A DNA stretch of 64,000 nucleotides from Buxus sempervirens (lineage: Eukaryota; Streptophyta; Magnoliopsida; Buxales; Buxaceae), in contig OX387192.1 in the NCBI GenBank assembly GCA_947561395.2, forward strand, positions 2,852,001 through 2,916,000, in the 5' to 3' direction. Position numbers and translations under genes: made by a program. The first letter of the stretch is position 1. The number at the start of each line of letters is the position of its first letter. Below, piece by piece: positions 18,672 to 62,019 of this stretch. The notes under the pieces are model-generated. The model was not told the DNA's origin. It searched no databases and worked only from the letters and a program-made list of their open reading frames with translations.

Positions 18672-19391
18672 TGGAAATAAATTATCCATTAAAAGAACAA
18701 CAAGTTGTTGTATTATAAATTATCTATTATCTAATAGTAAAGAAAATATATTTTCTTTTGTTTGGTTTCTATCATACAAATGCAGTGACGCCAACCTCGT
18801 CCTCGTCCTCGTCCTCGTCCTCAAACGAATTCTTATCTCCTTCGACTCTTTTTGATGTGTTGTCCAAGGAATCAGTTCTCTTGGCGGCCCAAATAAACAG
18901 AAAAAGGGATTTGTGTCCAAAAGAAGTGGCCAATTGACTTGGATTACATGGAAATAACAAACTCAAACGACAAATTAATAGAATAGAAAGAAATGGGTCA
19001 ACAGGTTTAACCATCTGGGTCTGTCAAGTTTTCTTTGGCTAGGCACCATTGAAGCCTGAATTTGGAGTCGGTTCATTGCCGGACAATAATGCTTTAAAAC
19101 CTAATAAACCGGGACGAACCCCTGGTTATCCTATTATTGTTATTAATTATTTTGTGGCCAAGGTAATACTGACAAGGACAAAACATTGATATCTATTATT
19201 AAAGCCTTTTAAGCACATGTCAGTTAAGATCAAGGTTTTTCTTTTCCTGAAGCATTACTTGAATGAAAAGAAATACCATTCAGCTGCCTCAATGAATTTC
19301 TCTGTTCTATAAAGTTAACTTTCTATAAAACCAACTGGCCAAGGGTGAGACTGAGACATTCTAGGAATTAAAGATTTGTGAAGGAGAAACA
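18672..19391 (+). promoter_or_regulatory. UGT-B upstream region, duplicated with the gene
   Basis: It aligns with the region upstream of UGT-A and in part, reversed, with those of C and D. The TGACGTCA octamer reads TGACGCCA at 18786-18793, followed by a CCTCGT/CGTCCT microsatellite to about 18826. The GGCTAGGCACC block is at 19035-19060. The transcription start was not determined. Confidence 0.6.
18786..18826. promoter_or_regulatory. Altered TGACG palindrome with (CTCGTC)n microsatellite upstream of UGT-B
   Basis: TGACGCCA replaces the TGACGTCA found upstream of A, C and D. It keeps one TGACG half-site but loses the palindrome. Four CTCGTC hexamers follow directly. This is the only copy with the expansion. 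Confidence 0.5.
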
Positions 19392-20887
19392 ATGGAATCT
19401 ATGGGGAGGAATAAGAGTATTCTCAGAGCTCATGTTCTTGTGTTTCCTTTCCCTGCCCAAGGTCACATAAATCCTATGCTCCAGTTCTCTAAGCGCTTGG
19501 CCTCTAAAGGACTCAAGGTCACGCTGGTCACAACCATATTCATCTCCAAGTCTATGCATGCCCAAGCTGGATCAGTAAAAGTGGAGCCAATTTCCGATGG
19601 CTTTGATGATGGTTTTACAAATAAGGGAAATTTCGAAAATTTCGATGTCTATCTTGAACGATTTGAAGCTGTGGGTTCGAGAACATTAGCCCAACTCATT
19701 GAAAGACTCGGTGGATCTGGAAATCCAGTTACATGCCTCGTGTATGACTCCTTTTTAACATGGACACGCGAAATAGCCAAAAGGCTAGGCTTAACTTCTG
19801 CTACCTTCTTCACCCAGCCCGGCGCCGTGAATGCAATCTACTACCATGTTCAACGAGGAAATTTAAGTACTCCCATTCAAGGGACAATGATATCGGTTCC
19901 TGGATTGCCATTTCTTGTAATTTCAGAGCTACCATCCGTTTTACATCCTCTTGGGTCATATCCAATTTTCTTGAACTTCGTCTTGAAGCAATTCTTCAAC
20001 TTTGAGGAAGCAGATTGGATCTTGATCAACACGTTTGACAAGCTTGAGGAAGAGGTCTGGTTTCAATTCTTGATTGATCTAATTAATTTGTTTGTTGGAG
20101 TGTAATTTGCTAAGATATATACTTGTCTAATTAGTGACCATATGTTCTTGGACTGCATTAGGTCGTGAAATGGATGACGAAGCAGTGGCAAATGATCAAG
20201 ACAATCGGACCAACTATACCATCTATGTACTTGGACAAGCGAATGGAATACGTCAACGATTATGGATTCAATCTCTTCAAGCCGAATTCAGATGATTGCA
20301 CTAAGTGGTTGAGCTCCAAGGGAGATGGTTCTGTCGTTTACGTGTCGCATGGAAGCTTGGCAACACCAAGTGAAGAGCAAATAGAGGAGATGTCGTGGGG
20401 ACTGAAGATGACAAACAGATACTTCTTGTGGGTACTAAGGGAATCAGAGCATAACAAGCTTCCTAGAAACTTCAAAGAGGAGATATCAGAGAAAGGCCTG
20501 ATAGTGACATGGTGTTCCCAAATGCAAGTATTGGCTCACAACTCAGTGGGGTGTTTCGTAACTCACTGTGGGTGGAACTCAACTCTGGAGGCATTAAGCT
20601 TGGGAGTGCCAATGGTGGCAATGCCTCACTGGTCAGATCAAACGACCAATGCAAAATTTATTGTGGACATTTGGAAGGTAGGATTGAAGGTGAAGGTCGA
20701 CGATAAGGTAATTGCTAGAAGAGAAGAAATAGAGCTCTGTATAAATGAAATTATGGAAGGAAAGAAGGGGAAAGATATTGGAAGGAATGCTCTTAAATGG
20801 AAGGAGTTGGCCAAGGAGGCAATAGATGAAGGTGGAAGCTCAGCTGAGAATATTAAAGAATTTGTTTCAGCACTTTCTTGTGTGTGA
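19392..20887 (+). CDS. UDP-glycosyltransferase, UGT74-like (UGT-B)
   Basis: Close paralogue of UGT-A with the same predicted reaction: transfer of a sugar from UDP-sugar to an unknown small acceptor. Exon 1 is 19392-20054 and exon 2 is 20162-20887, with a 107-bp GT-AG phase-0 intron (20055-20161). The product is 462 aa; the five extra residues lie at the N-terminus (MESMGRNKS) and around TNKGNFENF. Catalytic His25 (PAQGHINPM) and Asp119 (CLVYDSFLTW) are present. The PSPG box spans 338-381, ending HWSDQ with the Gln that favours UDP-glucose. The conserved VSYGS loop of the sister copies reads VSHGS here, an unusual His close to the sugar-donor pocket. No stops or shifts were seen. Its TGACGTCA promoter octamer is altered. 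Confidence 0.94.
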
Positions 20888-24385: not shown

Positions 24386-26150
24386 TTACACACATGTAAC
24401 TGCTGCAACAAATTCTTCAATGTTCCTATCTGAGCTTCCACCTTCATCTATTGCCTCCTTGACCAACTCTTTCCATCTCATAGCATTCCTTCCGATCTCT
24501 TTCCCCTTCTTTCCTTCCATAACTTCATTTATACAGAGCTCTATTTCTTCTCTTCTGACAATTCCCTTATCATCTACCTTCACCTTCAATCCTACCTTCC
24601 AAACGTCCACAACAAATTTTGCATTATCGTTTGATCTGCCCATTGAGGCATTGCCACCATTGGTACTCCCAAGCTTATCGCCTCAAGAGTCGAGTTCCAC
24701 CCACAATGTGTCACGAAACACCCCACTGAGTTGTGAGATAATACTTGCGTTTGTGAACACCATGTCACTACAAGGCCTTTCTCTGATGTTTCCTCTTTGA
24801 AGTTGCTAGGAAGCTTGTTCTGCTCTGATTCCCTTACCACCCACAAGAAATAGCTGTTTGTCCTCTTTGATCCCCACGCCAGTTCCTCTATTTGCTCTTC
24901 GATTAATATTGCATAGCTTCCATAGACACATAAACGACGGAACCAGCTCCCTTAGAGCTCAACCACTTTGCGCAATCATCCAAATTCGGCTTGGAAATAT
25001 CAAGGCCGTAAGCCTTGTCATCTTCTATCTGCTTCCTCAAGTACATAGATGGCAAAGTTGGTCCGATCGTCTTGATCATTCGCCATTGCTTCGCCATCCA
25101 TTTCACTATCTAATGAAGTTCAGGAACATATGGTCAATAGTTAGACTCAAGTATCACAATTGGAAAAGAGACTTCTAGTGGTGTAAGAACAAGGACTTCT
25201 TGGTGAGGAAAGTAATCAAAGAAGAGGGTTTGAAGGGAATGAGGAAGCTTGTATACAACTTGCTTCAACTTTATGGCATATACAAAATGGAGAGAATTTT
25301 GTATTACAACTATCAATTAGTTATATCTTCCAACTACCATCGACCAAGTAAATGACAATACCATCCACTAATCATCAACTATCTACTAGCCAAAAAAATA
25401 CACACTTCTTTGGGCCATTCTAAGACTAAGCCCAACATAAATATCAAGCCAAAAGTTAATTTTATTTCACTATAACAATGGGAATCAAAAGCAGACCTCT
25501 GCCTCAAGCTTGTCAAACGTGTTGAACAAGAGCCAATCTGCTTTCTCAAAGTTGGAGAATTGCTTCAAGGCGAGGTTCAAGATAATTGGATATGACCCGG
25601 GTGCATATACAAAGGATGGTAAATCTGGAATTCCAAGAAACGGCAATCCTGGAACCGATATCATTGTTCCTTGAATGGGAGTACTTGAATTTCCCCGTTG
25701 AACATGGTAGTAGATCGCATTCACGGCGCCGGGCTGGGTGAAGAAGGTAGCAGAAGTTAAGCCTAGCGTTTTGGCTATGTCGAGTGTCCATGTTAAATGG
25801 GAGTCATAAACGAGGAATGTAACTGGATTTCCAGAACCACCGAGTCTTTCAATGAGTTCGGCTAATGTTCTCGAACCCACAGCTTCAAATCGTTCAAGAT
25901 AGACATCGAAATTTTCGAAATTTCCCTTTTTTGTAAAACCATCATCAAAGCCATCGGAAATTGTCTCCACTTTTACTGATCCAGCTTGGCTATGCATAGA
26001 CTTGGAGATGAAGATGGTTGTGACCAGTGTGACCTTGAGTCCTTTAGAGGCCAAGCGCTTAGAGAACTGGAGCATAGGATTTATGTGACCTTGGGCAGGG
26101 TATGGAAATACCAGAACATGAGCTCTGAGAATACTCTTATTCCTCTCCAT
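24386..26150 (-). pseudogene. UGT74-like glycosyltransferase pseudogene (UGT-C)
   Basis: Fourth copy of the family and the only broken one. Exon 1 (25497-26150) is open, starts MERNKSILRAHVLVF and keeps His22 and Asp116 (TFLVYDSHLTW). The intron is 25110-25496 (387 bp) and exon 2 is 24386-25109. Compared with UGT-D, exon 2 has lost one base in the VSYGS codons (near 24923) and one in the QTINAK codons (near 24628), so the frame fails twice. The PSPG box between the two shifts is still readable (WCSQTQVLSH to QWADQ). Both losses are single bases and the rest aligns closely, so inactivation looks recent. A transcript could still act as RNA; a working enzyme is unlikely. Confidence 0.9.
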
Positions 26151-26398
26151 TGTTCCTCCTTCACAGATCTTTAATTCCTAGAATGTCTTAGTCTCACCCA
26201 TGGCCAGTTGGTTCTAGAGAAAGTTAACCTCATAAAGCAGAGAAATTCATTGAGGCAGCTGTATAAAGTTTGTCTTCATTCAAGAAATGCTTGAGGAAAT
26301 GATCTTGACTGAAGGCTGAACTGACGTGCTTTTGAAAGGCTTTAATCAGAGATACCAACGTTGTATCCTTGTTAGTATTCCTTTGGCTACAAAATAAT

Positions 26399-34516: not shown

Positions 34517-35374
34517 ATACGCACACGTAAATTCTATATAATATAGATTATAATACAATAATATATTATAATATATATAATATTGTAGTAGTATTATACA
34601 ATATTAATAATATATAATATTATATTATAAATCATATAATATAAATTATATATAATATATGCATATAATATTATGATTACATCATATAATAATATTGTTA
34701 TTATAATATTCAATATACCCTAGTCTAATATTTTAATATATCATATTATATTGTATCATATTATGATATTAATATATAATATTTTTTACAAATAATATAA
34801 ACATATATATAATATGAAATATTTATTTATATAATTTAATATATATACCATATTATGTATGTCTTACATTTAATATAAACATAATAAAATTTATATTTTA
34901 ATATCTTATAATGTTGTATAATATATTATATTATATATATGTTTATATTATATGTAAGAAAATTATATATTAATATTATAATATAATATTATGTATTAAA
35001 TAATATTATATTATAGTATAATATTATACAATAATATACTATAATATCTTATATTATAATATATTATTATAAAATTGTATAATATACATTATATGCAATA
35101 TAAAATATTATATCTTACTTAATTTAATATAATATTATATGTAATATGTTATATAACATGTTATATTGTAATGCTTATAATATTATTATTTATTATAATA
35201 TATATTATATATTATGTTATGCATAATCTGTAGAATCATTGATTTTGGAAACTTAAGCACCAATGTTTGTAATCCTTACAATCATATTTAAGATAGATTA
35301 TGATTATGGCCTAGATTATAACATTAGATTGTAGAATCCGTCTAAAAAATCCAAACCAAACACACTTTCTAGAG
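34517..35374. repeat. AT-rich tract, right part
   Basis: Nearly 700 bases of TATAATATTA-type sequence (34522-35220) are followed by AGATTATGATTATGGCCTAGA and TAAAAAATCCAAACCAAACAC. The last part is roughly complementary to the TTGTTTGGATATC...GATTTTTTAATC stretch near 32035. The whole may be one AT-rich inverted-repeat element split by the solo LTR, but this is unproven. Confidence 0.65.
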
Positions 35375-36002
35375 TATAAAATTGGGAAAATTATCGAATG
35401 GGGCACCTTTTGCCCGGTATTGCCAAAAACAGGGAACGAAAATTGATATTGCGTGAAAAAGGTAACTTTTCTAAACAAATTGCGGAATGGGGGGGCCAGG
35501 TCATCTGGGGCTGAAGTAATCAAACCAACAAAGGAACACTTAAAAACTATCAAGAAAAAAGAATATGGTAAATAATTTCAGAGATAATTCGGTGTTTTTA
35601 TGAGAGCACTCAACACTAATGAAAAAGGATATGCATGAAGAAAAAAATATTTTCCAATGCTTTGATTGAAAGAAGTTTCTTGTGGGGGACAGAACAACAT
35701 CACATCTATTTCCTTGTAAAGCTGCTTTAAAGGAGACTCAGAAGCTAGGTATGTAGTTGTAATTAACGCAACTTACGACATCACAATTAGATACAAGTTG
35801 TTTAGTAATTCTTCTAATTTAATCCTACAGCTATATTGGACATAACATATATCAGCTCTACTTTATCACATAATACGGTTTAGTGTCCTTTATGGAGGAA
35901 AGAAGAGAAGTCATTAAAAGGGAGGAAACAACAGGATGATATTAACAATTCTTATGGAAGAGACATTCAATAGACCCACAGATTTAGCAATATGAGGCAT
36001 AC

Positions 36003-36335
36003 CATCTAAAAGATAATCAAGGCCAACATAACCCAGAGTGCCTGACAGTTTGATGTTCTTGTTTTGAGCCCCAGAAGTTACAGCAAGACCAAAATCAGAA
36101 AGCTGAATGAAGGAAAAAAAAATTGAAAAACAGCAACATTTTAGTAAATTCATAAAGGATGACAAATGAATATATTATGTAAGCTCTGAAAATCAATATG
36201 AAAAATTCAAGCAAAGGTAGAGGATTTGACCTTTGCATTGAACTTGGAATCCAGAAGAATGTTTGATGATTTTAGATCTCTATGGATCACCGGGGGATCA
36301 CAATGCTCATGGAGATTTTCTAATCCCTTGCTCAA
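36003..36335 (-). pseudogene. Captured receptor-like kinase fragment (catalytic loop and activation segment)
   Basis: Two exons of a plant receptor-like kinase are readable on the minus strand. Exon 36231-about 36335 gives [19 protein letters not shown] then [13 protein letters not shown], the catalytic loop with the HRDLKxxN motif. A 128-bp GT-AG intron (36103-36230) follows. Exon 36003-36102 gives [11 protein letters not shown] with the DFG motif, then [17 protein letters not shown]. The usual APEY reads GLDY, so Pro-Glu is lost. Both splice sites survive, which points to capture from genomic DNA. The rest of the kinase is missing. The closest remembered relatives are RLKs of the At1g80640 kind. 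It lies wholly inside the MULE. Confidence 0.88.
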
Positions 36336-36618
36336 CACCAATAAAGTCAAAATAACATATGCTAATATCGGAAGTCATTGCTTTACAAGGAAATAGATAC
36401 AAGTTGTAATTAACGCAACTTCCATATGTAACTTAATATGAGCATGCTCAGTTGCGTTAGATGTAAACCATCCACAAAAAACAATATCATGATATGAGCA
36501 TGCCCACTGTGCCAGTTACCTACATTGTTGAGATTAGGAACTTAAGTGAGTTATGCTTTAACACTAATATGTGTAGAGCTTTTTACGTGTGCCTCAATAG
36601 GCCAAACTGAGACGTACC

Positions 36619-38673
36619 TTATTCACGCAAAGCCTGCGAGTGGGCCACCATCTGCTCCCTCAACTTGTTTTCTGGATCTAGTAGAAGGCCCGCCAACAAC
36701 TTCCTCCGAAATTGCCCGATATTCGTCTGTTGCATTAAACTTTATCATTATAGCAAAAGAATTCTAGAGCACGAACCTAATGCATATATTTATTTATATA
36801 CTTGCCTGCGCAAATTGCGAGACCAATGCATGCCCATCCCAATACTCCATAAATTTAAGAAGGAACACACCGCAATCAACGCTATATCACACAATGCAAA
36901 ACAGAGGTTAGAGATATAACAGCTTGCTGAAACACAATCCTAAACTAATCACTTACGCGTTATCTTGCTTAGGCATTTTTGGATAGTAGACGGCCCACCT
37001 GGCAATTCCATTTGAATATCCAGCGGCATATGTACAAAATAATTTATCAAAAAATTTCGCCTGCATACATGAACTACATACTCACTAAGTGCATAGAAGG
37101 AAATTCAAAATTATAGAGTTCCATATGCATATAGAACCAGTAAATCTCCACTTGTTTTGTTATCTGGAGCAACATAAACTAATGCTAACTACTTGTAAAA
37201 TGCAATGATAGTTATTACGCACCAGACTTTTGATGATTCCCTTATATTGTTGCCCTCGCCGGTGTCCTTGCGAATCCAACACCTCGATCCTCGTCTCATT
37301 GTGATTGAACACAACAAGGAACCAGTGGTTCCTATGACAGACGGGGACGAAAAGCTACAAGGCAATCATAGCATGAAAACAAATACAATGGTTTCCATTA
37401 ATAATACTGTTATGAAAAACCCTTCAAGTAGACAAGATAGCACCGAACCATAGAAAATGCAAACTTACACACCAACTTGCAATGACTTAGCAACCTGCCA
37501 GTCTTACCGACAGTGAAGAATTTTTGGAATGCAGCCTTCTGGGTTATTTCGCCGCTTATTATTGCTTCCTAAAATTTATAATAACATCGGTACTCCACAG
37601 GAGCAAGAACAATATACAAGTTCAAAGCTAAGGCAATATACTTACACTGGCATAGGGGGGCAATATTGCTTGCGAAGCGTCGAAGAATGACGTAACTGAT
37701 GCCTCATTAGGCAAACACCATGGGCAGCCACAACCTAATTTCCATAGAACACGCAATTATGTTATCTTACCATATATGGATATAAATATTATATTGTAAT
37801 TCAAAGTTACAACGTAGTGCTTCCCACATACCGAGCTCCCAATCATGTGTTTGTCCATCGAGCAGCGAATCTCGCCCATCATCACATGAGTGCTGTCGAG
37901 ATCGACAACAGTCGTGCTATACAAAAATAGGAAGTCATTCGACTTAGTGTGGGGAACGCACAACGTAAATATGACAACCATACAAGAATTCTTATGTTTA
38001 TGTAACTATGGACCCCACATACGCATACATGTTGACAATGAATGGTTAAATATGACAATAATAAGTATAAATCGTGCTAATGAAGTACTTACTCTTCATC
38101 GCGGCTAAGATAAACCCAATCGCAGAGACGCTTTTCGTCATCCCTGAGTGGAGCGAATTTGTAGACCATTACATAAGGAGACGAAAGCTTTGTTGCTGTC
38201 TGCTTTATTCGTCTTTTCCTACTTGCAATTGGCACCGTGCGCGCAACTGGGGGGTTCCTCAGAAGGCGCAGCCACATCTGGTGGCACATCCCCGCCTGCG
38301 TCCTCATAGGTGGTAGGATCCTCAGTCAGTGCACCACCACGGTCCAAAGATGTATGAGTGGGTGGCGGCACACCAACTCCTACATCACCAGAGGACGTAG
38401 GCTCCTCTCTCGGACCTCCCTGTGCATGGAGACGTCTCTCGATGTATGCATCGAGAGAGGTGCAGCAGTGCTGCATCTCAGTGGCAGCTGCTACCATCCT
38501 CTGCATCTGGATCCGCAGGCCCTACATCAACAGCAGCAATGAAAGATTATAAAGTGAAACAATTACAACTTCAGCACAATGTCATTATAGCAACTTTTTA
38601 CCTCGTACACAAGAGACGGCAATCCGCCTCTATCCCTCCGACCGTAGCGTGTATCATCCCTACTATCAGCCAT
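36619..38673 (-). CDS. Ulp1/SENP-like cysteine protease (C48) gene inside the MULE
   Basis: Nine exons can be chained with GT-AG (one GC-AG) splice sites and matching phases: 38673-38602, 38521-38093, 37916-37832, 37734-37648, 37568-37471, 37331-37223, 37060-36957, 36881-36806 and 36726-36619. The product is about 390 aa. Catalytic motifs appear in C48 order: NHWFLVVFN (His), then EVLDSQ (Asp), then PKMPKQDNAVDCGVFLLKF (Gln region and Cys). C48 enzymes cleave SUMO or related modifiers from proteins, usually in the nucleus; the target here is unknown. Exon 2 needs one frame change near 38263 (a run of six C) or an unseen intron. Start choice (MADSRDDTRYG) is tentative. It lies on the minus strand within the MULE repeats. 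Confidence 0.82.
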
Positions 38674-38959
38674 AGCAATCAATTATATCTGCACATGTAT
38701 TCAATTTCATATGCATCGAATAAACCCAGAATACAGAAATAAATTTCCTTGTATGACTACTTGAGCAATGCACGAAGCGAACCATAAGGCGTTCACAACC
38801 GCGCCAAAAAAATCCGAACTAATGATAACAATGAAAACTACTTAATCTGCTACTCAGTACAACACACAAAATAACACTGGTAAATATGGGATTTTACTAG
38901 TACGACGATTATATACAATCATAATGTTATTATTTCCCACAAAATAATCATCGCAATAT

Positions 38960-39690
38960 TATAATAGGAATAAACAAAGTTCATTGCATACCAAGACATA
39001 TACTAAGATTGCTAAAAATATTCTAAACTCCCTTTGAACATGAGTCAGAATCTGCGTCTTCAGGTTTAGATGCTTCAACCACCTTACGTCCTTGTGTTGG
39101 AGGCGATTCAAAGTCTGAGTAGTCGGAATCTTGTTCCAAAACAAACCTACTTTCATTAGATATATCCAACTCCGATTGGAAAATGGTGTCACCATAAATA
39201 TCTCATACCTTACGTGAACACTCTTCAATGTCCTCACCCTTGCCTTTAGCATTTCTAAACATTTCCAATGCCCTTTGCCTTCTTAAACGGCTTAACATGT
39301 GCCAAGTTTCTCTTTTTATTAATTTCAACGCACGTTCAACTACGTCATTGTTAATATGCTCAATATCCAAGGACCTTCGTCTTGGAATTGTCATTTCCCG
39401 ATAACAGAGCCTACTTTGTAGTAGTTTAGCATGATGATAGTGTTGGGTCCACTGCTTTCGAAGATGCGAAGAGATCCCTTGTTGTGTGGGTACATCGCGT
39501 AGACTACAGCAACATCGAGTAGAGCAACTCCCACGACTAGCCATACTCTATAAGAATTTAACATGTATTTCTTCCATGTTAGTGGGAGATAGAAGCATGC
39601 TTTATGTCCTCTAAACAAATCACAAGAATCTATGAACATGATAAACTCAATGGAGTTTGAATACCAACAACGTAGGAACATTACACAAAT
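38960..39690 (-). other. Coding-like stretch upstream of the ULP gene, unrecognised
   Basis: The minus strand reads IKRETWHMLSRLRRQRALEM then FRNAKGKGEDIEECSRK (39203-39360), a basic and charged segment. Within 38960-39200, in another frame, is an acidic one: ESRFVLEQDSDYSDFESPPT then KPEDADSDSC. This looks like fragments of real exons, perhaps a separate gene or a 5' part of the protease gene. No family was recognised and the splice pattern was not resolved. Confidence 0.4.
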
Positions 39691-41570
39691 TTTCAGAACC
39701 CCAAAGACTGGACTCCAAAAACAAAGTCTCCTTCCATGTATCTATTCCCTTATAGTAATACTGTTTTAACAAGGCAAACGTCACTAGAATATCCTACCCC
39801 TTCCTCCAAATACTTATCTATAAAATACAGATATTTAGCAATAGTAGAACATTCACTTAATTTCTAAACAATTATGAATCATCAGGAAATCCTCAATTTG
39901 CAAAAAGCTAAAGCATTGGTACCCTGAAGCTCCCAAGCAGATCATTGCAATGTAGTTCCCCATACGCTTGCAAGTAGAGGATTTCTCCACAGACTCATAT
40001 GGGAGCTAGGATAACACATAATCACATTTTATAACTTCTTCAATGCCTAGTTGTCTAGCACAATGGGAGAGAAATATTCTCTGATGCTCTAATCCAAAAA
40101 ACTTAAAAAGTGAACAACATTACTCTATAGGTACCAGCTCCAATGTGATAATCAACTCAAAGAGTTAACAACTATTACATCCACCTTTGAAAGCAAGCAT
40201 TGCTGTCTGCAATCAAATATAGCCATACCTTCGGCATTATTTTTGATAATATTTCCTAAACTTGCCTTGAATGAGCAATTGAGGATATAGATCCATCATG
40301 CAATATTTTTAACAACTAGTATATAACCATGTCTCTTCGATTCCTAATACGATTAGTCCAACAGAAAACATTGATATACTTCACAAATTCCTTCAATTGC
40401 CAGATTTTTCTCTCCAATAAAAATGTAACCTTTCCAACCAGGAAAAACTGCTGAAATTAGTGTTCATACTAATGACTGGCCTCCTTATATGAAGTTGTAC
40501 TCTATATGGAAGAGCAAACACAAGGGTCAATGACAATGAGCATCAACCTTTGACAAAGGCTTGAAAATATATGCAGGACATATGATGATTTCATATATTC
40601 TTTACAAATTCAAGAAAGTTTTAGGAAATCAAAGAGAACTTCAGAATCTGACATGATGAGGTCCCACTTATTTGTTTTTTTTCCCTTCTTCTATCCTTTC
40701 TGTTCATTGGGATGGTTTTCTCTTGTTAGAGATGTTATTCGGTTACTAATGTATTCTTCTTCTATATTAGCAAATATTTCAATGCAAATGGATAAAAACA
40801 TGATAACTAAAATTCCAAAAAAAAAAAGGGGATACAGCAACCTGTACCGAAACAATCAGAAAAAATAGAGAACAAGTGATTATAAGAAACAATGTTGTTG
40901 AAAAGGGAATGGCCAATTGCCAAAAACCTACAAGTTTCCATCATTCAATCCCTAAATAGAAAAGAACCCTAGAAAAGAAATCAAGTAGCAACAAAAGGAA
41001 AAGAATCGAGAGAGCAACAAAAATACCGGGGACAGGAGCAGTGGGTGGTCGACGGCGTCTGCTTCAGATGGGGGGTGGCCGCAGAGTTCGTGAAGCTGGG
41101 TGCTTTCCACTTGCCAAAAACAGCCGAGGTTGCCGAACGGAAAAGGGGGAGACGGCTTTCCACTTCTCTCAAAACGAGACGAACAAACCGAAAGGGGGTT
41201 GACGAATGGGTGTCACCGGAGGGCCTATTAAGGGCACACGAAAATAGGCAAGCGCCTTCAAACAATCTCCAGGTGCAGTCTCCGGGGGTTCCAAAGAAAT
41301 AGGGTGAGTTCGGTCTTGGCGCGAACAAAAATAGGGTGAAAGCGAGAGGAGATAGAGGGGGTTTGGCGCGAACAGAAATAGGTTGATGCGATCGACGTCG
41401 CCAGAGAGAGTGACTGGCACGGTGGGGAAGATGGGAAACGGGGTTTGAGCTTTCCCTTCTCTCTCTTGCCGCCAAGCACGAACCCGTTCGAATTGAGAGA
41501 GAGGGAGAGAGGAGAAGCGTGTTTGGGTTGCTGACGTGGGAGAGAGGGGGGGCAAAATGGGAACAAAACA
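39691..41570. other. MULE interior without recognised coding, GC-rich near the right repeat
   Basis: 39691-40980 is AT-rich with no convincing gene. 40981-41570 is more GC-rich and holds overlapping long open frames on both strands (40981-41595, 41169-41684, 41258-41629, 41045-41302). Several frames being open at once argues for composition rather than coding. Its place upstream of minus-strand genes and inside the terminal repeat suggests promoter or 5' leader sequence. Confidence 0.5.
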
Positions 41571-42072
41571 GTGCCCGATGACCTGGCCCCCCCATTCCGC
41601 AATTTGTTTCGAAAAGTTACCTTTTTCACGCAATATCAATTTTCGTTGCCTGTTTTTGGCAATACCGGGCAAAAGGTGCCCCATTTGATAATTTTCACTA
41701 TAAAATTAGATTCAATCCAGGTTCAATAATGCCGACTAAACACCCCGACGTTCAACCGAGTAACTGTGGCAAAAAGCTTGGTCCTCGACTTAATTACATA
41801 TTTCTTTCAGAGAATGATGACAGTTCAAACCTTTTTGCCATTGTACACTTCTGTCTCCTCATCTCAACCTTCGTTGCCATCTCTCTCCCTTCTGCAGCGA
41901 TGCGCCACCGTTGGACAAATCCAACAGCTTCACACTCTTACCATTAAAACCGGTCTGCACCTCAACAATCCCTTAGTTGCTGCTAGATTTGTCCAATCAA
42001 TTTGTTCTACATTTGAGTTTTGTTCTTCTTTTTCTTCCTTCCCACCAAAACCTGGCGATGTCGATTACTTAC

Positions 42073-44021
42073 TGTCATGCCCCGAGTACTAAACCTTAAT
42101 AAATACATAGGCCCGTACCCCAAAGCACGACCTCGCTCGTAAGCCAACAACGATGTGAAAACAAATGTACGAACCAGATTAAAACCAATAATAAAATTCA
42201 AAGATTTAATAACATCTCCTAATGAAAATTTGTAAATACCATAAGTGAAATTCCTATAAAAGTTCCTCCATATTCAATATCTCAATAAAATCCTATCACT
42301 ACCAAGTGTTCAGACCTACCTATCAATTTAAAACTAGTAACTTGAGAGGAAGGTCGTTCACTGCCCCTTTGGTTTTGCGTTCTCCTCAAGACCTGAAATT
42401 TAATCAGTAGGGATGAGTACGACGACTCAGTAGATGGAGCTATTTCACTCCATATAATAAGATTCACAAAGTATGGCAGTTATCTCAGTATTTAGAGTCT
42501 AACAAGAATAAAATAATATGCAGAAATCAGCACCATCATGAACAACTTTATCATATATCATGTGCTACAACCATGTGTTTTAGAATCACGTATGCCATAT
42601 GCAAACATTACTTGTAAAATCAATCACACGATAAATCGCAAGGGTCCTTCTCCCCCTGCTACCCTGTCAGTCTTTATAAATCTCATTGATCAACATTTAA
42701 TAACAAGCAGGATGAAAGAAATAAAATTTTCCAAACTGTAAATATTTAAATATAGGTTCCTCATGCCTAAATTTAAATATTTAAGTAATCAAACAATGGT
42801 TTGTCTCTGTTCTGAAAACAATGGTAGGTTCTCCAATACAAAATATTTATTGTAAGTTAATGATACCTAAATTCACTTATTTAAATAATCAAACCATTCT
42901 CAGTCTTTTCCCGGAACCAAAAGAGAATCAAATCATCCTCTGTCTTTTCCTAGAACTCAAAAGAAGTTTAGGATTTTACCTTATGCCTAAACTTTAAATA
43001 TGTAAAAGTAACTTGATTCTTTTTAAAGAATATTGAATGACAGAAACGTCCCATTCATTTTTCAATTCCTAAATATTTATAGAAAGGTTCCTGTACCTGA
43101 ACTTTAAATATAACCTTAACTTTTAATTTCAAATAAATCATGTATCTCTTTTCCCAAACGAGCATATCACTTCTTTTCTAATACCAAAGGATCTGACAGA
43201 GTCAAGCAGCATTCAATCGTTCTCTCTAAATTTTTATAAAGCAATTTAGGTACCTGAACTTTAAATATTTATAAAACAATTCATGTCCCTCTTTGTATCT
43301 TTTCCTACCAAACAAAAGGGTTGAGTCTCTCTCTCTTTCTTTCTTCTCTCTTCCCAAACAAAACAAAAGTACAAGGCTCATGTCACTTTCCATTCTCTCT
43401 CATTTTCTTCCCTTTCTCTCTCATTTCCCAAAACAAAAGGGACCCTCATCTCTACGGTCTCTCTCTTTCTTTCTTCTCTCTTCCCAAACAAACAAAAGTA
43501 CAAGGCTCATGTCACTTTCCATTCTCTCTCATTTTCTTCCCTTTCTCTCTCACTTCCCAAAACAAAAGGACCCTCATCTCTACAGTCTCTCTCTCTTCTT
43601 CTTCACCAAAACACGAACCACTCTCTCTTTTATATGACACATTGAAATAGAACAAACATAACATCACAAAAGGGAAAATCAAATCATAAGGAGAGAATAG
43701 CAGCACCTACCTGGCTGCTTTTGCTTTTAGAAGACCCAACAAAGAAGGAAGCTCAACGACAAGGCCTCCTCCCTCTCCTGGTCGTCAAGTACAAGCCCCA
43801 ATTAGTGTTGCTAAAAAAAAGTTAATGAGATAACCCTAATCTTTATTTATACACATGAGGTAAAATGTCCTTAATATCCTTTAATCATAATCAAAATACC
43901 CATCTAGCCCTGAGGGTGTGAGATTTAATCTCAACCCTCCCATTTACCATCCCCAAAAGCTTTTTGACTAACCAATGGGGTGAAGCCCGGTCAATGTTGA
44001 AAAGTTGACCGGGTTCTTACA
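42073..44021 (-). mobile_element. Solo LTR, Ty3/gypsy type, inside the PPR gene
   Basis: It starts TGTCATGCCCCGAG and ends CGGGTTCTTACA, with the 5-bp target duplication CTTAC at 42068-42072 and 44022-44026. Read in reverse it begins TGTAAGAACCCGG and ends GGGGCATGACA, as in gypsy LTRs. It contains a tandem repeat of about 132 bp (43325-43585). There is no internal domain. Confidence 0.92.
43325..43600. repeat. About 132-bp tandem repeat in the solo LTR
   Basis: GTCTCTCTCTCTTTC, CAAAAGTACAAGGCTCATG, TCACTTTCCATTCTCTCTC and AAAACAAAAGGGACCCTC recur at 43325 and 43457, with a third start at about 43583. The overlapping serine/leucine-rich frames here come from this repeat. Confidence 0.9.
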
Positions 44022-44650
44022 CTTACTCTCCATTGTTGATCGTGGGGTCCTCTTCTTTTCTCTCCAACACCGTCATCAAAGCCTACACTCAAATCGATCG
44101 ACCCCAAGAGGCTTTCTTACTGTTCTACAAAATGCTCCATGACCCAACTCCAGTACTTCCCGACAAATTCACTTTCTCATTTGTCATCAAGTCTTGCGCC
44201 CAGTTATGCGCCATTGAAGAAGGTGAACAGATGCACTGCTTCTTATTGAAAACCGACTTTGCATCTGATCTCTTCGTGCGGAATTCTTTGATTCACATGT
44301 ATGTTCGCTGTAGGAAGATTGGTAGTGCTTATAAGATGTTCGATGAAATGCCAGAGAGAAATGTTGTGTCTTGGAACTCAATGATTGATGGGTTTTTGAA
44401 GACTGGGGACATTGGCGCTGCGCGGAGATTGTTTGACGAAATGCCTCAAAGGAACATTGTATCTTGGAATTGTATGATTTCTGCGCGTAGATTGTTTGAA
44501 CTGATTGAACCTAGTAATTAAATTTTCAAAAGTTTACTCAAGTGAAGATGACCAACCGAGTTTCAAAGTCATACTAAACACTTGAGAGCCCCACTAAGTT
44601 TCAAAACCATCTTAAACAGTTTAGGAGCTTGTGTTTAACATACAAAAAAA

Positions 44651-46361
44651 TTACACAGATGTAACTGCTGCAACAAATTCTTCAATGTTCCTATCTGAGC
44701 TTCCACCTTCATCTATTGCCTCCTTGGCCAACTCTTTCCATCTAATAGCATTCCTTCCGATCTCTTTCCCCTTCTTTCCTTCCATAACTTCATTTATACA
44801 GAGCTCTATTTCTTCTCTTCTGACAATTCCCTTATCATCTACCTTCACCTTCAATCCTACCTTCCAAACATCCACAATAAATTTTGCATTGATCGTTTGA
44901 TCTGCCCATTGAGGCATTGCCACCATTGGTACTCCCAAGCTTATCGCCTCAAGAGTCGAGTTCCACCCACAATGTGTCACGAAACACCCCACTGAATTGT
45001 GAGCCAGTACTTGCGTCTGTGAACACCATGTCACTACAAGGCCTTTCTCTGATGTTTCCTCTTTGAAGTTGCTAGGAAGCTTGTTCTGCTCTGATTCCCT
45101 AACCACCCACAAGAAATAGCTGTTTGTCCTCTTCAGTCCCCATGCCAGTTCCTTTATTTGCTCTTCACTTAGTATTGCATAGCTTCCATATGACACATAA
45201 ACGACGGAACCAGCTCCCTTCGAGCTCAACCACTTGGTGCAATCATCCGAATTCGGCTTGAAGATATCAAGTCCATAAGCTTTGTCATCTTCTATCTGCT
45301 TCTCCAAGTACATAGATGGCAAAGTTGGTCCGATCGTCTTGACCATTCGCCATTGCTTGGCCATCCATTTCACTATCTAATGAAGTTCAGGAACATATGG
45401 TCAATAGTTAGACACTCAAGTATCAAAATGAATTATGTTAGAAGAGAGACTTCTAGTGGTATAAGAACAAGGACTACTAAAGAGGGTTTGAAGGGAATGA
45501 GGAAGCTTGTATACAACTTGCTTCAACTTTGTGGCCCATACAAAAGGGAGAGAGTTCATGTGTTACAAATATCAATTAATTCTACTAATCAAAAAAGCAC
45601 ACACTTATTTGGACCATCGTAAGAACTAAAGCCCCCAACATAAATATAAGGCCAAAAATAAAGTTTATTTCTCAAGAACAAATTAATTAGATCAATGGGA
45701 ATCAAAACCAGACCTCTTCCTCAAGCTTGTCAAATGTGTTGAACAAGAGCCAATCTGCTTTCTCAAAGTTGGAGAATTGCTTCAAGACGAGGTTCAACAA
45801 AAATGGATATGACCCGGGTGCATATACAAAGGATGGTAGCTCTGAAACTCCAAGAAACGGCAATCCAGGAACCGATATCATTGTCCCTTGAATGGGAGTA
45901 CTTAAATTTCCCCGTTGAAAATGGTAGTAGATCGCATTCGCGGCGCCGGTCTGGGTGAAGAAAGAAGCAGAAGCTAAGCCTAGCCTCTTGGCTACATCTA
46001 GTGTCCATATTAAAAGCGAGTCATAAACGAGGCATGTAACAGGATTGCCACAATGGCCTAGTCTTTCAACGAGCTCAGCTAATGTTCTCGAACCCACGGC
46101 TTCAAATCGTTCCTGATAGACATCAAAACTTCCCTTTTCTTTTGTAAAACCATCATCGAAGCCATCGGAAATTGGCTCCACTTTTACTGATCCAGCTTGG
46201 GCATACATGGACTTGGAGATGAAGATGGTTGTGACCAGTGTGACCTTGAGTCCTCTGGAGGCCAGGCGCTTAGAGAACTGGAGCATAGGATTTATGTGAC
46301 CTTGGGCAGGGAAAGGAAACACCAGAACATGAGCTCTGAGAATACTCTTTTTCCTCTCCAT
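44651..46361 (-). CDS. UDP-glycosyltransferase, UGT74-like (UGT-D)
   Basis: Intact minus-strand member of the cluster, predicted to glucosylate an unknown small acceptor. Exon 1 is 45714-46361 and exon 2 is 44651-45376, with a 337-bp GT-AG phase-0 intron (45377-45713). The product is 457 aa. His22 (PAQGHINPM) and Asp114 (CLVYDSLLIW) are present. The PSPG box spans 333-376, from WCSQTQVLAH to QWADQ with the final Gln. Loop residues differ from A and B: VSYGSYAILSEEQ instead of YGSLATPSEEQ, and QWADQ instead of HW(T/S)DQ. Its acceptor range may therefore differ. It shares intron sequence and 5' and 3' flanks with UGT-C, making them sister copies. The first exon-2 residue is Ile where A and B have Val. 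Confidence 0.95.
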
Positions 46362-47280
46362 TGTTTCTCCTTTACGGGTTGTTAATTCCTAGAATGTCTC
46401 AGTCTCAGCCATGGCCAGTTGGTTCTAGAGGAAGTTAACTTCATAAAACAGAGAAATTCATTGAGGCATCTGTCTAGTTTGTGTCTTCATTCAAGTAATG
46501 CTTGAGGAAAACAACAAACTTGATCTTGACTAAAGGTTGAACCACTGACGTGTGCTTTTGTGTTCCTTTGGCCACAAAAAATAACATAATATATAATAAT
46601 AATAATAAGATAACCAAGGGTTCGCCCCGGTTTATTAGGTTTTAAAGCATTGTGGTCCCGAAATGAACCAGGTCCAAATTCAGGCTTCAGTGGTGCCTAG
46701 GCAATGAAAACTTGACCAACCCAGGTGGTTAAACCTGTTGACCCATTTGTTTCCTCTCGCTTAATTTGTTATTTGAGTTTGTTCTTTTTCCACGAAAGCC
46801 AAGTCATTGGACTGACCCAGCAGTTCAACAATGGAATTCACTGACCAAAATTTGGTCTGGGTTTTAGAAAGTTCGTAACTGCACTAGAGGAAAATGGATC
46901 TAAGTTATGATATACATTCATATCCTTTTTTCTGTTTCTCTTGTGGCGCCGAGACCAGTGTTTTCCTGGACAAGACCTCAGAAAGAGACGAACGAGATAA
47001 GAGTGAGCTTGACGTCACTGCGTTCGTAAGATATAAAACAAACAAATGAAAGTATTTTCTTAGATATTTTCTTTCCTTAGGAACATAGACTTCCAGTCTT
47101 CCGGACACAGCTAAAAGAAGCTTGATGAAAGAGAAGGCTAGAACCATGATATGTTATATCCACTCAATATTTTTTTTTTGTTAGTTAGCACACAATTGCT
47201 TAAAAGAAAATACCGTTGAGCTCATCCTTTCTAGATATTATGATGAAAAAGAAAGAATGTTACTCCGTTGGATTAACTGT
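46362..47280 (-). promoter_or_regulatory. UGT-D upstream region, duplicated with the gene
   Basis: It aligns with the UGT-C upstream region and in part with those of A and B. The GGCTAGGCACC-type block is at 46679-46703 (reads TGCCTAGGCAA on the plus strand) and TGACGTCA is at 47010-47017. Homology to the C flank extends to about 47280 (GAATGTTACTCC), near where the hAT element entered the C copy. Confidence 0.6.
47010..47017. promoter_or_regulatory. TGACGTCA palindrome upstream of UGT-D
   Basis: A perfect octamer 656 bases before the UGT-D start, in the same local context (GCTTGACGTCACTGC) as the UGT-C copy. Confidence 0.5.
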
Positions 47281-51371: not shown

Positions 51372-52106
51372 AGCTGTTAGAAAGCCGAGACGTCGACCAA
51401 GCCACCCATTGTCATGACTCATCACCAGAGATCATGAGTTAGCCATGCGTCCTATGGTGCTCGAGATATCCGTCAGATCCAACCTCGTCAAAGTGGTGTC
51501 GCAATTTGCTCATCGTCGACACCTGCGTCTCAACGTTCTTAGCTGCTCTGGCAATGTACCCAATGTCACCCTGCACCACCATGCTTTATTTTATTTAATA
51601 GAAAGGCATTTGCACATAGGCGGAGGCCATCCCTAAAAGGCCATGAGCATATAGTTTGTGATCACCTGTTGGCCGAAAAAAGGAAAGGGCAAACTAGTAT
51701 TTTGTTATATTCGACCAAAGAGGGTGTGCACAAAATACGGTGTTTGTCCATTTTCATATGGGTTGTGTTGTTATTTGCCCTTTCCTTTTTCTGGCCAACA
51801 GGTGATCACAAACTATATGCTCATGGCCTTTTGGGAAGGCCTTTTGGGGATGGTCTCCGCCTACGTGCGTATGCCTTTCTATTAAATAAAATAAAGCAGG
51901 GTGGTGCAGGGTGACATTGGGTACACTATCGGAGAAGCTAAGAACGCTGAGACGTAGGTGTCGACGACGAGCAAACTGCAACACCACTTCGACGTTGGAT
52001 CCAGTGGATATCTCGAGGGCCATAGGATGCATGGCTGACTCATGCTCTCTGGTGATGAGCCATTAGCAATGGGTGGCTTGGTCGACCTCTCGGCTTTCTA
52101 ACAACT
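51372..52106. mobile_element. Large foldback element with arms of about 330 bp
   Basis: AG(C/T)TGTTAGAAAGCCGAG at the left and its complement at the right begin two arms (51372-51700 and about 51775-52106) that pair almost completely. Examples are GGTGATCACAAACTATATG and TTTATTTTATTTAATAGAAAG with their complements. The loop is about 70 bases (ACCAAAGAGGGTGTGCAC). Apparent frames in the two arms are mirror copies of each other. No target duplication was clear. If transcribed it would form a long hairpin RNA. Confidence 0.9.
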
Positions 52107-56744: not shown

Positions 56745-59180
56745 TTAGATTTTCTTACCCAAAACTTGTTTGTATCCCAAAACACAGTAGCAATTATCAC
56801 TTGTTCTTATTCCATTCATTACACATTTTCCATTTTCATTTATAATTTGACATTCTTTCTTTGTAAAATTCACATGGTGATTGGAATCACATAGCTGGCT
56901 GATGCTAATGAGATTGGCTTTCAATTCTTTGACAAACAGAACCTCATTTAAGCACAAACCATTAGGTCCTTGAATTTTTCTTTTCCCTTTATTTTAGAGG
57001 TGTTTCCATCTCCAAAAGTGACTATACCACCATTATAGTCATCTAGGGAACTGAACAGAGATTTATCTCTAGATACATGCCTGGAGCATCCACTATCTAG
57101 ATACCACAAGTTGTTGTCATGTGCTTTTAAAGCTGTATGGACAACTTAACAGACAAGATCATACTTCCTAACCCAGATTTTCTTCACTTTTGGAACCAGA
57201 TTTTTCATGTATGAGTTATTTGAAAGTATTGATGCATTCTTTTGCAATTTTTGAGCAAAACATATGAGGTATTTGGTGTCTCTTAGGTTCTGAATTTTTT
57301 GGATAGAAGTTTTGTTACTTTCGAAAGAGCGTCACATCTGTCGAATAAGGAAAATTTTGACTTATTTTGAGTCTGAAATTTTTTCTTATCAACATATTCC
57401 TTAGGTAACCCATGTAGAATGTGGAATTTAGGCTTTATGTGTCCTTTCCTTCCACAATAGTGACATATAGGGATAAAAGAGACAGGTTTAAATTCATGCT
57501 TCTTTCTAGCATTAACCCTATAATCAAAACTTTGAACATTGAGTTTAACAGTGGAAGTAAGATTATTACCAATTGAAGCTTTACTCTTGGGTAGACTTTG
57601 TGAAGAGCTTTCTCCAATTGATAACACCATTCTTTTTCCTTTGAAGGCTTGGTTCAATGAATTTTCAGCAACATATCCAAGTCCACTATGATCTTTATCT
57701 CTTCTTTGACTCTCCAGCATTTCGTCTAGTGCCTTAGTTCCTACAGAAAATTTAGTAAAAAAAAATTTTAGACAACTTGATTTCATTTTCTAACAAGGAG
57801 ATTTTACCTTTCAAGTTATCTAACTCAAAAGATTATTCCTTGTACATGAGCTTAGCTTCATGAATTTTAGATACTAAGTAAGTTTCTCTAACTTGTACTT
57901 CCAAGACAATTTTTTCCAACTCTTCTCTTTGTCTCAAGCAAGTTTCTTTTTCCTTTTCAGAACCCTTTAATTGAAGTGACATCCTCTTACATTTTTTCTG
58001 GAGTTTGTGAAATTCCCTGTAAAGGAGATTGTAAGCTTCTGGAAGATCACAATTCTCTTCTGATTCTTCATCTTCACTACACTCACTAGGGGATTCAGTG
58101 TCTGAATTCAGTGTGACTAAAAATGCCATTAAATTTTCTTGACTTTCATCTGTTTCGGAATCAGACGTTTCATCCTCACCACTGTCATCCCATGTGGCTT
58201 TCAAGGCATTTCTCCTTTTAGACATTTTTTTTGGACAATCAACAGCAACATGTCCAAAACCTTGGCATTTATAGCATTGAATTCCCTTCAGATTTCTTCT
58301 CTTATTTTCTGTTTTTGTTTCACTGTTCTTCTTATCGAATCTAAAATTCTTGGGTTTCACTAATAAGTTTGTTGATTGCTTCTTCTTGAAGAATCTTTTG
58401 AACTTTTTAGCAAGTAAGACCAATTCTTCAAAGTCATCATCTGATTCATCATCTATATCCTCTTTTATACTCTTAAGAGTAATCCCCTTCTATTTCTTGA
58501 AAATTTTCAGATTTGCTTCAAAAGTTTGTAGAGACCCAACCAATTCTTCTACCTTCATAGCATCAACATCTTTTGCTTCTTCAATGGCAGTAACTTTAGG
58601 TTGGAATCTCTCAGGTAAAGGTCTCAGAATTTTTCTTACAATCTTGGAGGTAGGAATCTTTTCTCCTAGATTGAAGCTAGTATTGACTATGTCACTCAAC
58701 CTAAAGTAGAATTGATCAAAACTCTCTTCTTCATCCATCTGAATTGTTTCAAAAAAAGTGGTTAAACGTTGCAAATGAGACAATTTAACAGCTAATGTAC
58801 CTTCACGAGTAACCTCTAAAATGTCCCAAGCTTCCTTAGCAATTTCACATGTAGAGTTTCTTCTAAATTCCTCAATAGTAATAGCACTGAATAAGGCATT
58901 AATAGCCTTGTTATTCCAACTACAATTGTCAAAATCCCCTTTACTCCACTTATCATGAATCTTTGGTACAACAACACCTTGAACATCTTCTGTTGGTGCT
59001 TAATACCTATTCAAAATAGACAACCAGATTCTCTCATCTAAAGACTTCAGATAAGCTCGCATTCTTGCCTTCCAATAGGCATAATTTGACCCATCAAAGA
59101 GGGGTGGCCTAGAGGAAGAAGCCCCTTCTTTGTTATAGTCCATAGAGAACCAAGATCTCACTCCTTAAACAGATTTGAGT
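56745..59180 (-). pseudogene. Gag and start of pol of the copia fossil
   Basis: From right to left, a copia gag region (UBN2-type) includes DEEESFDQFYFRLSDIVN (58490-58783). The CCHC zinc knuckle CYKCQGFGHVAVDCPKK lies at about 58235-58285. A second cysteine-histidine motif, CHYCGRKGHIKPKFH, is near 57440, followed by a gag-pre-integrase-like segment with LISISQLCDSNHHVNF (56745-56957). Integrase core and reverse transcriptase were not found. Several breaks are present. Fossil. Confidence 0.85.
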
Positions 59181-60567: not shown

Positions 60568-62019
60568 ATGGATGCCCTTGTTAGCGGTTTTCATCATCTT
60601 GCACTGCCTTCCAGACCGAACCACGTTTTCTCCTTGTCATATGACGAGAAAAATCGTATGGAGTCTCGCTGGACATATCTTTTGTTGATTGAAATCCCTA
60701 ATGCTACTCCTTCGTTAGCATCCCTAAAAAATCTGGCTGATCGGGTTTGGAAATCGATTACTATTCTCTCCTACCTTCAGATTTCTTCTAATTGGTTCCT
60801 GCTATCAGTTTCCACTGAAAATGAGCTTCAGGCTGTTATTTCATCACAACCTTGGTTCCTCAATGGTAGTCTCTGTTTGATGGCCCGTCTTCATAGCAAT
60901 GATGACACTAAGAAGTTCGTGTTCCGAACCATCACCATTTGGATGTAGCTACATAATCTTCCTCGTTCCCATTTTGATGTGGATTTCTTTTATCGACTTG
61001 GCGATGATTGTGGCAAAACTTTGGATGTTGAACTCCCACAGAACCCTGATTTCCCCCATGCTTGCACAAGGCTCGAGATGAATCTTCTGGCTCCTATTCC
61101 CTCCGGAATTTTTGTTGAATTGTTAGATTCAACTCAAGTTCGAATCGATTTTTGTTATGAAGATTTGCCTGATTTTTGTTTCGGTTGTGGTTTTATAGGT
61201 CACCTGCTTACATCTTGCTGTGCATCATCCGATGGTCATCATCATGGGTGTTCTTCGGAGTTTGTCCCCAAGTACTTAGAGAAGAATACTGTTCCTTCTC
61301 GCTGGTGCTGGCACTTGCTTGCCGCCTTCCTAGCCAAAGGCAATTCTAATTTGCCGGGACAAACCTCTGCTTCCAACCCTCCACATCCGTATCCGAACCC
61401 GGTTCCTGCATACGATGGGTCCAGTTCAGCAGCTTCTATGAACATTATTCCGTGTGGGCCCCTTGGCACTTCAGAGGGATTGGGCCGCGTTGGTGGGCTC
61501 TCGCCAGTCATTGCCACCATCCAATCTTCACATTCTTGGCTTTCACCAGTTCCTGGGCTTTCAACTGATGCTACCTCAGACGTCTCCACAGGGGCCCTCC
61601 CTTCCCGGCCTTCTCGGTTTTCTGCTTCTTCCGATAAAATGAGCACTTCAACAGAGCTGGGGGTCAACTTACTGTTTTCTGACTTCTTCAGCAAAATGTC
61701 TCCAGGAAATCAGGCTTGGGATTCTGTTCACCTAGCGGCTTTACCATTTCTTGTTTTATCAGACAACAGCACCAGAGCGTCTTCCTCGGCTAAGACTGTC
61801 AGGCATCACCAAAAGGCCATTTCAATCAAAAATTTCACTCACAAGGATGCTACATCGGTCCACTCCTCACCTATGGAAGCTTCTCCGACATCTAAGAAGC
61901 GAAAGCTCCTTCAAATCTCTAATCGTCCTTCTCCCTCAGATCATTCTTCTCACCCTGAGTCGAGCTCTTCTTCTGCTCCATCATCTCGTCCTTCTAAGGA
62001 CGCTTGTTCTCCTTCATGA
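60568..62019 (+). pseudogene. LINE ORF1 (DUF4283-like plus CCHC knuckle)
   Basis: RNA-binding protein of the LINE particle. From MDALVSGFHHLALPS the frame runs to the TGA at 62017-62019, 483 codons, with a single in-frame TAG at 60946-60948 (a Gln or Trp is expected in WxQLHNLP). A DUF4283-like region lies at residues 25-140. The knuckle FCFGCGFIGHLLTSC (CX2CX4HX4C) is near residue 210, and a Ser/Pro-rich tail follows with SKKRKLLQISNRPSPSD. The TGA overlaps the ORF2 start as ATGA. Confidence 0.85.

What the first reader, a model, noticed from the sequence alone, without database searches (positions are those of the whole stretch)
35384..41698. 6.3-kb Mutator-like element carrying a multi-exon Ulp1-like protease gene
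The sequence shows a 125-bp inverted repeat, a 9-bp target duplication and, inside, a spliced-looking C48 protease gene with His, Asp and Cys motifs in order. Plant MULEs with ULP-like genes (Kaonashi type) are known, but their function is not. The open frames and phase-consistent introns suggest the protease has been under constraint, or arrived recently. No transposase was recognised, so the protease may be a passenger or an accessory factor.
Basis: partly seen in the sequence, partly recalled or inferred. Interest (0 to 1): 0.8.

Follow-up and report, generated by a model that had tools for sequence, protein, structure and literature searches.

The report
Plant jumping gene carrying protease gene
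This is a plant Mutator-type transposon, apparently without its own transposase, that carries a nearly complete SUMO-protease-like gene and a scrap of a receptor kinase gene; elements of this general sort are already described from other plants.

Summary
The element is real. At 35384-41698, inverted repeats (123 bp aligned, 96.7% identity) are flanked by identical 9-bp duplications, TATAAAATT. Inside, on the minus strand, a nine-exon gene encodes a Peptidase_C48 match (E 1.7e-16, read through one frame break) with His, Asp, Gln and Cys aligned to SENP2.

(1) The frame breaks inside exon 2 at a six-C run: a frameshift, or an unusually G+C-rich extra intron; the exon 4 donor is weak. From an ATG at 38169 the protease part is open. 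(2) The element also holds a receptor-kinase fragment with an intron, framed by exact 20-nt direct and 19-nt inverted repeats, like a repair scar. (3) It fails the tested Kaonashi features: it has TIRs, and no mudrA or DUF1985 was found.

No transposase family matched any of 105 open frames. Best reading: a non-autonomous Pack-MULE of the ULP-bearing TIR-MULE kind, moved in trans, the protease most likely a hitchhiker. No host genome was available, so copies, selection and expression are untested.

The parts
35375..35383 (.). left 9-bp target-site duplication TATAAAATT
35384..35513 (+). left terminal inverted repeat (best aligned part 35386-35508)
35704..35722 (+). 19-nt exact inverted repeat of 36380-36398, left edge of the kinase capture
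35755..35774 (+). 20-nt exact direct repeat of 36402-36421, left edge of the kinase capture
35998..36102 (-). second exon-like piece of the captured receptor-kinase fragment (LSDFGLA...)
36231..36326 (-). first exon-like piece of the captured receptor-kinase fragment (...[12 protein letters not shown]...), phase-0 intron between the two pieces
36380..36398 (-). 19-nt inverted-repeat copy at the right edge of the kinase capture
36402..36421 (+). 20-nt direct-repeat copy at the right edge of the kinase capture
36619..36726 (-). ULP-like gene exon 9 with stop codon
36806..36881 (-). ULP-like gene exon 8, catalytic Cys (VDCGVFLLKF); GC donor
36957..37060 (-). ULP-like gene exon 7, Gln of the active site (PKQ)
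37223..37354 (-). ULP-like gene exon 6, catalytic His (NHWFLVV) and Asp (VLDS)
37473..37568 (-). ULP-like gene exon 5
37648..37734 (-). ULP-like gene exon 4; the frame-consistent donor is weak
37832..37916 (-). ULP-like gene exon 3
38093..38521 (-). ULP-like gene exon 2, frame break at the six-C run 38249-38254; internal ATG at 38169 lies in the protease frame
38602..38673 (-). ULP-like gene exon 1 with candidate start codon
39023..39544 (-). open frame MASRG... (173 codons, one in-frame TGA), unknown; possibly an exon of a second gene
41029..41568 (-). G+C-rich region (0.556) inside the right TIR, possible promoter and leader (inferred)
41569..41698 (-). right terminal inverted repeat (best aligned part 41574-41696)
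41699..41707 (.). right 9-bp target-site duplication TATAAAATT

Best explanation
A non-autonomous TIR-type Mutator-like element (Pack-MULE) in a plant genome, of the kind that carries a ULP-like gene, in which no mudrA transposase could be found. Its TIRs are bound in trans by a MURA-type transposase encoded elsewhere (inferred); integration left the 9-bp duplication (shown). The Ulp1-like gene travels as a genomic gene with introns (shown by sequence, not by transcripts), is probably transcribed from the G+C-rich region inside the right TIR (inferred), and is more likely a decaying or neutral hitchhiker than a needed factor (inferred). The kinase fragment was captured by break repair with template switching, which left short exact direct and inverted repeats at its edges (structure shown, process inferred).
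For: TIR and TSD. Nine-exon C48 gene. No transposase family among 105 stop-to-stop frames of at least 33 residues, while the same scan caught one kinase piece and one C48 piece. Frame break in exon 2. Kinase fragment with an intron, only part of the domain, APE replaced by GLD. Scar-like repeats. Precedents: grapevine TIR-MULE families marked as including a ULP region, e.g. Mutavine-4, 7.1 kb, TIR 141-144 bp, TSD 9 bp (Table 4 of PMC2528002, seen in passages).
Against: Only one copy could be seen, so mobility of this arrangement is not shown. The protease part after 38169 is open over eight exons with the catalytic residues kept, which could mean selection. The frame break may be an assembly error or an intron. 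The edge repeats could be older structure of the element: 3 of 200 shuffles gave an inverted 19-mer (0 of 200 a direct one). Short or badly decayed transposase remnants would have been missed.
Confidence: 0.72

Rival explanations
1. The protease is a working accessory gene of a MULE lineage: it removes SUMO or a related modifier from the transposase or from host silencing proteins, so that the family escapes silencing. This would parallel the VANC/KIU proteins of Arabidopsis VANDAL elements, without DUF1985.
For: His, Asp, Gln and Cys kept. Frame open over eight exons after 38169. ULP regions recur in MULE families that do not group together (PMC2528002 passage). KIU-bearing VANDALs are reported to be hypomethylated through their own protein, and the Ulp1 part is strongly conserved in eudicots with unknown role (PMC13317346 passage).
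Against: No DUF1985 or other second domain matched. Frame break in exon 2. No transposase found in the element. Profile positions 1-77 of C48 are not matched. The Arabidopsis KIU loci are described as weakly or not detectably expressed and unlikely to act on SUMO (PMC6117577 passage).
Confidence: 0.15
2. An internally deleted autonomous ULP-MULE: the transposase gene once lay in the 39-41 kb part and was lost, so the protease is an old resident of the lineage and not a capture by this element. This overlaps with the best explanation and differs only in where the protease came from.
For: In grapevine several MULE families have the ULP region downstream of the transposase ORF (PMC2528002 passage). 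Here 39548-41028 is about 1.5 kb of A+T-rich sequence (G+C 0.338) without a protein match, between the leader-like region and the genes.
Against: No transposase remnant in the 105 frames scanned.
Confidence: 0.45
3. A host ULP gene that happens to sit between two unrelated MULE ends.
For: The gene has an ordinary exon-intron composition.
Against: The two repeats are inverted, 96.7% alike, end in register and are flanked by the same 9 bp, as the two ends of one insertion are.
Confidence: 0.03

Closest known systems
Grapevine TIR-MULE families marked as including a ULP region (Mutavine-3, -4, -18; PMC2528002, passages with Table 4 seen)
   Same: MULEs with long TIRs (Mutavine-4: 141-144 bp) and, for Mutavine-4, a 9-bp TSD; several kb long; ULP-like region inside
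   Different: Those families were defined through a transposase; none was found here. This element also holds a kinase fragment. Sequence relationship could not be tested
ULP-bearing MULEs of melon, Arabidopsis and rice (van Leeuwen et al. 2007; not read, known from citing passages)
   Same: C48 domain inside MULEs, including TIR-MULEs in melon
   Different: Sequences and gene structures could not be compared
Kaonashi / KIU elements (Hoen et al. 2006; not read, known from passages of PMC2528002, PMC13317346 and PMC6117577)
   Same: C48 domain in a Mutator-like element
   Different: Described as non-TIR, with ULP opposite mudrA and as part of VANC-type genes; here TIRs are present, and mudrA and DUF1985 were not found
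Pack-MULEs (definition seen in a passage of PMC3310237)
   Same: Non-autonomous MULE carrying genes or gene fragments
   Different: Carries a near-complete nine-exon gene besides a fragment

Membership tests
TIR-type Mutator-like element | long terminal inverted repeats | tested here: met
   123 bp aligned, 96.7% identity
TIR-type Mutator-like element | 9-bp target-site duplication | tested here: met
   TATAAAATT on both sides
TIR-type Mutator-like element | MURA/MULE transposase gene (needed only for an autonomous member) | tested here: not met
   no transposase family among 105 frames of at least 33 residues
TIR-type Mutator-like element | further copies with the same TIRs in the host genome | not testable with these tools
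   no whole genome held; no other copy in the window
Pack-MULE | non-autonomous MULE carrying genes or gene fragments | tested here: met
   kinase fragment and C48 gene, no transposase found
Pack-MULE | parental host copies of the carried genes | not testable with these tools
   no host genome
Kaonashi / KIU MULE | absence of TIRs | tested here: not met
   long TIRs present
Kaonashi / KIU MULE | mudrA in the same element, ULP in reverse orientation to it | tested here: not met
   no mudrA match
Kaonashi / KIU MULE | VANC-type DUF1985 together with the Ulp1 domain (KIU as VANC: PMC13317346; DUF1985 in VANC: figure legend of PMC5735166) | tested here: not met
   no DUF1985 match for the whole product at E up to 1 or its N-terminal 167 residues at E up to 10 (HMMER filters drop most matches above about 0.1)
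Peptidase C48 (Ulp1/SENP) | catalytic-domain profile with His, Asp, Gln, Cys | tested here: met
   E 1.7e-16, profile 78-204 of 217; aligned to SENP2
Peptidase C48 (Ulp1/SENP) | N-terminal part of the domain (profile 1-77) | tested here: inconclusive
   not matched in the whole product nor by the 122-residue piece from exons 2-5 alone; a divergent or misjoined region would give the same result
Peptidase C48 (Ulp1/SENP) | SUMO protease activity | not testable with these tools
   needs an enzyme assay

The most novel reading that the evidence does not exclude
A transposase-less TIR-MULE keeps a working C48 protease without a VANC-type DUF1985 part, and the protease acts for the whole family as a shared anti-silencing or transposase-stabilising factor, so that the element helps in trans the family that moves it.
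Probability: 0.12. Interest if true: 0.65.

Novelty: new member of a known kind. Interest (0 to 1): 0.28.

Why it matters
Why ULP-like protease genes sit in so many plant MULEs is unsettled: a passage of PMC13317346 says that the function of the Ulp1 domain in these elements is unknown. This copy has exact ends, a protease part with its catalytic residues, no transposase found, no DUF1985 found, and a second capture with repair-like scars. If the host holds further copies, selection on the protease could be measured where it is separated from the transposase and from the VANC domain. On its own it adds one element to a described group.

Tried and rejected
Kaonashi membership: rejected (TIRs present; no mudrA match; no DUF1985 match). 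Host ULP gene between unrelated ends: rejected (same TSD). Other copies of the TIR: none in the window with up to 3 mismatches; no exact match of the same 25-mer in viral contigs or genome contigs, which are not plant collections, so this says little. Relatives of the protease in viral contigs: 6 stretches matched a peptide pattern, none confirmed by tblastn. Rfam at gathering score and ARAGORN (bacterial setting) over the window: nothing. Exon 4 read in another frame, ending at the stronger donor: the C48 score hardly changes (62.6 against 62.4 bits), so the profile cannot decide it. MASRG frame: no Pfam match below E 0.1 (best 0.11, Phage_int_M; 0.037 for a shorter frame, taken as chance). 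E2F-like repeats: one literature search for E2F binding sites with MULEs; none of the 8 papers listed (of 701) holds the phrase; not pursued. PMC6446971 was searched for ULP, protease, Kaonashi and peptidase: 0 occurrences. PMC9569675 mentions Ulp1 only in its reference list. A recalled DOI for a paper on anti-silencing in eudicots is not held. Structure prediction was not tried, because the spliced protein cannot be read letter for letter from the window.

Full report
What is there. The window looks like plant DNA: UDP-glycosyltransferase-like genes, PPR repeats and retroelement remains. No whole genome is held for it, so what follows rests on one copy, general protein libraries and papers read in passages.

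Ends. Inverted repeats at 35384-35513 and 41569-41698 align over 123 bp with 4 mismatches (96.7%), or over 128-133 nt at 94-95% without gaps. Both ends are flanked by TATAAAATT, and the element's own ends read GGGAAAATTATC and GTGAAAATTATC. A 25-nt stretch of the TIR, allowing 3 mismatches, occurs only at these two places in 64 kb and in none of 100 shuffles. In grapevine MULEs the TSD, when found, is always 9 nt (passage of PMC2528002).

Protease gene. On the minus strand nine exons from 38673 to 36619 can be chained. The joined product, 395 residues after reading through one frame break, matches Peptidase_C48 with E 1.7e-16 over profile positions 78-204 of 217. Of 15 PDB sequences matched at E up to 1, the first four are SENP2 (best E 9.6e-06); His, Asp, Gln and Cys line up in the alignment to 1tgz (their catalytic roles are recalled). 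Exons are 50.5% G+C and introns 32.2% (single introns 27.8-34.7%). With approximate, recalled donor weights, seven of eight donors have at most 31 better sites among the 393 GT sites of that strand. The exon 4 donor has 219 better, and a stronger one just downstream would change the frame. Exon 8 ends in a GC donor. The C48 profile does not distinguish the two exon 4 readings (62.6 and 62.4 bits).

The gene is not clean. In exon 2 the frame changes at a six-C run, 38249-38254. As written, the product from the first ATG ends after 124 residues, before the protease. Three readings are open: a mutation, an assembly error, or an intron. Forty-three introns would restore the frame; the one with the best donor, 38388-38247, is 59.9% G+C, exon-like and unlike the other introns, so I favour a frameshift or error. 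From an ATG at 38169 the rest reads openly for 254 residues and a stop, over eight exons, and holds the whole recognised protease part. Profile positions 1-77 of C48 are not matched.

Kinase fragment. At 36326-36231 and 36102 to about 35998 lie two exon-like pieces of a receptor-like kinase, same orientation, with a phase-0 intron between them. Joined they match Pkinase with E 2.7e-12; among 782 PDB sequences at E up to 0.001 the best are BAK1 and BRI1 (best 60 shown). The APE of BAK1 aligns with GLD here and the rest of the domain was not found, so it should not work as a kinase. Its edges carry an exact 20-nt direct repeat (35755-35774 / 36402-36421) and an exact 19-nt inverted repeat (35704-35722 / 36380-36398). 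Shuffles of the core gave a 19-mer direct repeat in 0 of 200 and an inverted one in 3 of 200. Copied junction pieces fit repair with template switching, a model proposed for animal Pack-TIRs and said to be worth exploring for plant Pack-MULEs (passages of PMC8277862).

No transposase found. The 105 stop-to-stop frames of at least 33 residues lying within 35370-41710 were scanned. Eighteen families matched at E up to 0.1; only two kinase families and Peptidase_C48 are below 0.001, and none of the eighteen is a transposase. Shorter or badly decayed remnants would be missed.

How it works. Shown by sequence: an insertion with MULE ends, a C48 gene model with introns, a kinase fragment. Inferred: a MURA-type transposase from elsewhere binds the TIRs and moves the element; transcription of the minus-strand gene starts in the G+C-rich region inside the right TIR (TIR promoters drive MuDR genes and Pack-MULE interiors: passage of PMC3310237). 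The protease most likely hitchhikes. Whether it was captured by this element or inherited from a ULP-bearing autonomous lineage cannot be told. In grapevine the ULP region lies downstream of the transposase ORF in several families that do not form one group; the authors read this as repeated capture or frequent loss (passage).

What it is not. Kaonashi elements are described as non-TIR MULEs with ULP opposite mudrA, and KIU genes as VANC genes with a Ulp1 domain; VANC proteins carry DUF1985 (figure legend). Here TIRs are present, and neither mudrA nor DUF1985 was found. The nearest described kind is the ULP-bearing TIR-MULE, e.g. Mutavine-4.

Against a working accessory role, Arabidopsis KIU loci are described as weakly or not detectably expressed and unlikely to act on SUMO (passage of PMC6117577). 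For it, the Ulp1 part of KIU is said to be strongly conserved in eudicots, and the catalytic residues are kept here.

Verdict. A new member of a known kind, of modest interest.

Noticed in passing
39023-39544 (-): Open frame of 173 codons (MASRG...) with one in-frame TGA that sits in a donor-like AAG|GTATGA, and an acceptor-like site just before its ATG; no convincing Pfam match. It may be an exon of a second gene of the element.
   Followed up: partly
41316-41339 and 41363-41386: Two 24-nt repeats, 92% alike, containing TTGGCGCGAA (E2F-like, motif recalled) in the subterminal region; a passage of PMC3310237 says the MuDR TIR holds cell-cycle enhancer motifs.
   Followed up: partly
44009-44518 (+) and 41730-42089 (+): PPR repeats at 44009-44518; the frame at 41730-42089, right beside the element, reads by eye like the start of the same gene but has no Pfam match. 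The gene looks split by about 1.9 kb and cut short.
   Followed up: partly
10104-11652 (+), 19365-20884 (+), 24389-26177 (-), 44654-46388 (-): Four UDP-glycosyltransferase-like copies, 81-89% alike in DNA. Only two frames were tested: the one at 44654-45376 matches UDPGT, the one at 10104-10895 has no match. The copy at 24-26 kb looks broken by eye.
   Followed up: partly
51372-52106: A 735-bp stretch that matches its own reverse complement at 80%, a large imperfect palindrome.
   Followed up: no
34535-35211: Very A+T-rich tract full of TA-type inverted repeats, ending about 170 bp left of the insertion.
   Followed up: no
57836-58999 (-) and 60949-62850 (+): Copia-type gag and zinc-knuckle frames, and an apparent LINE (zinc-knuckle-like frame below its cut-off, endonuclease frame).
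   Followed up: no
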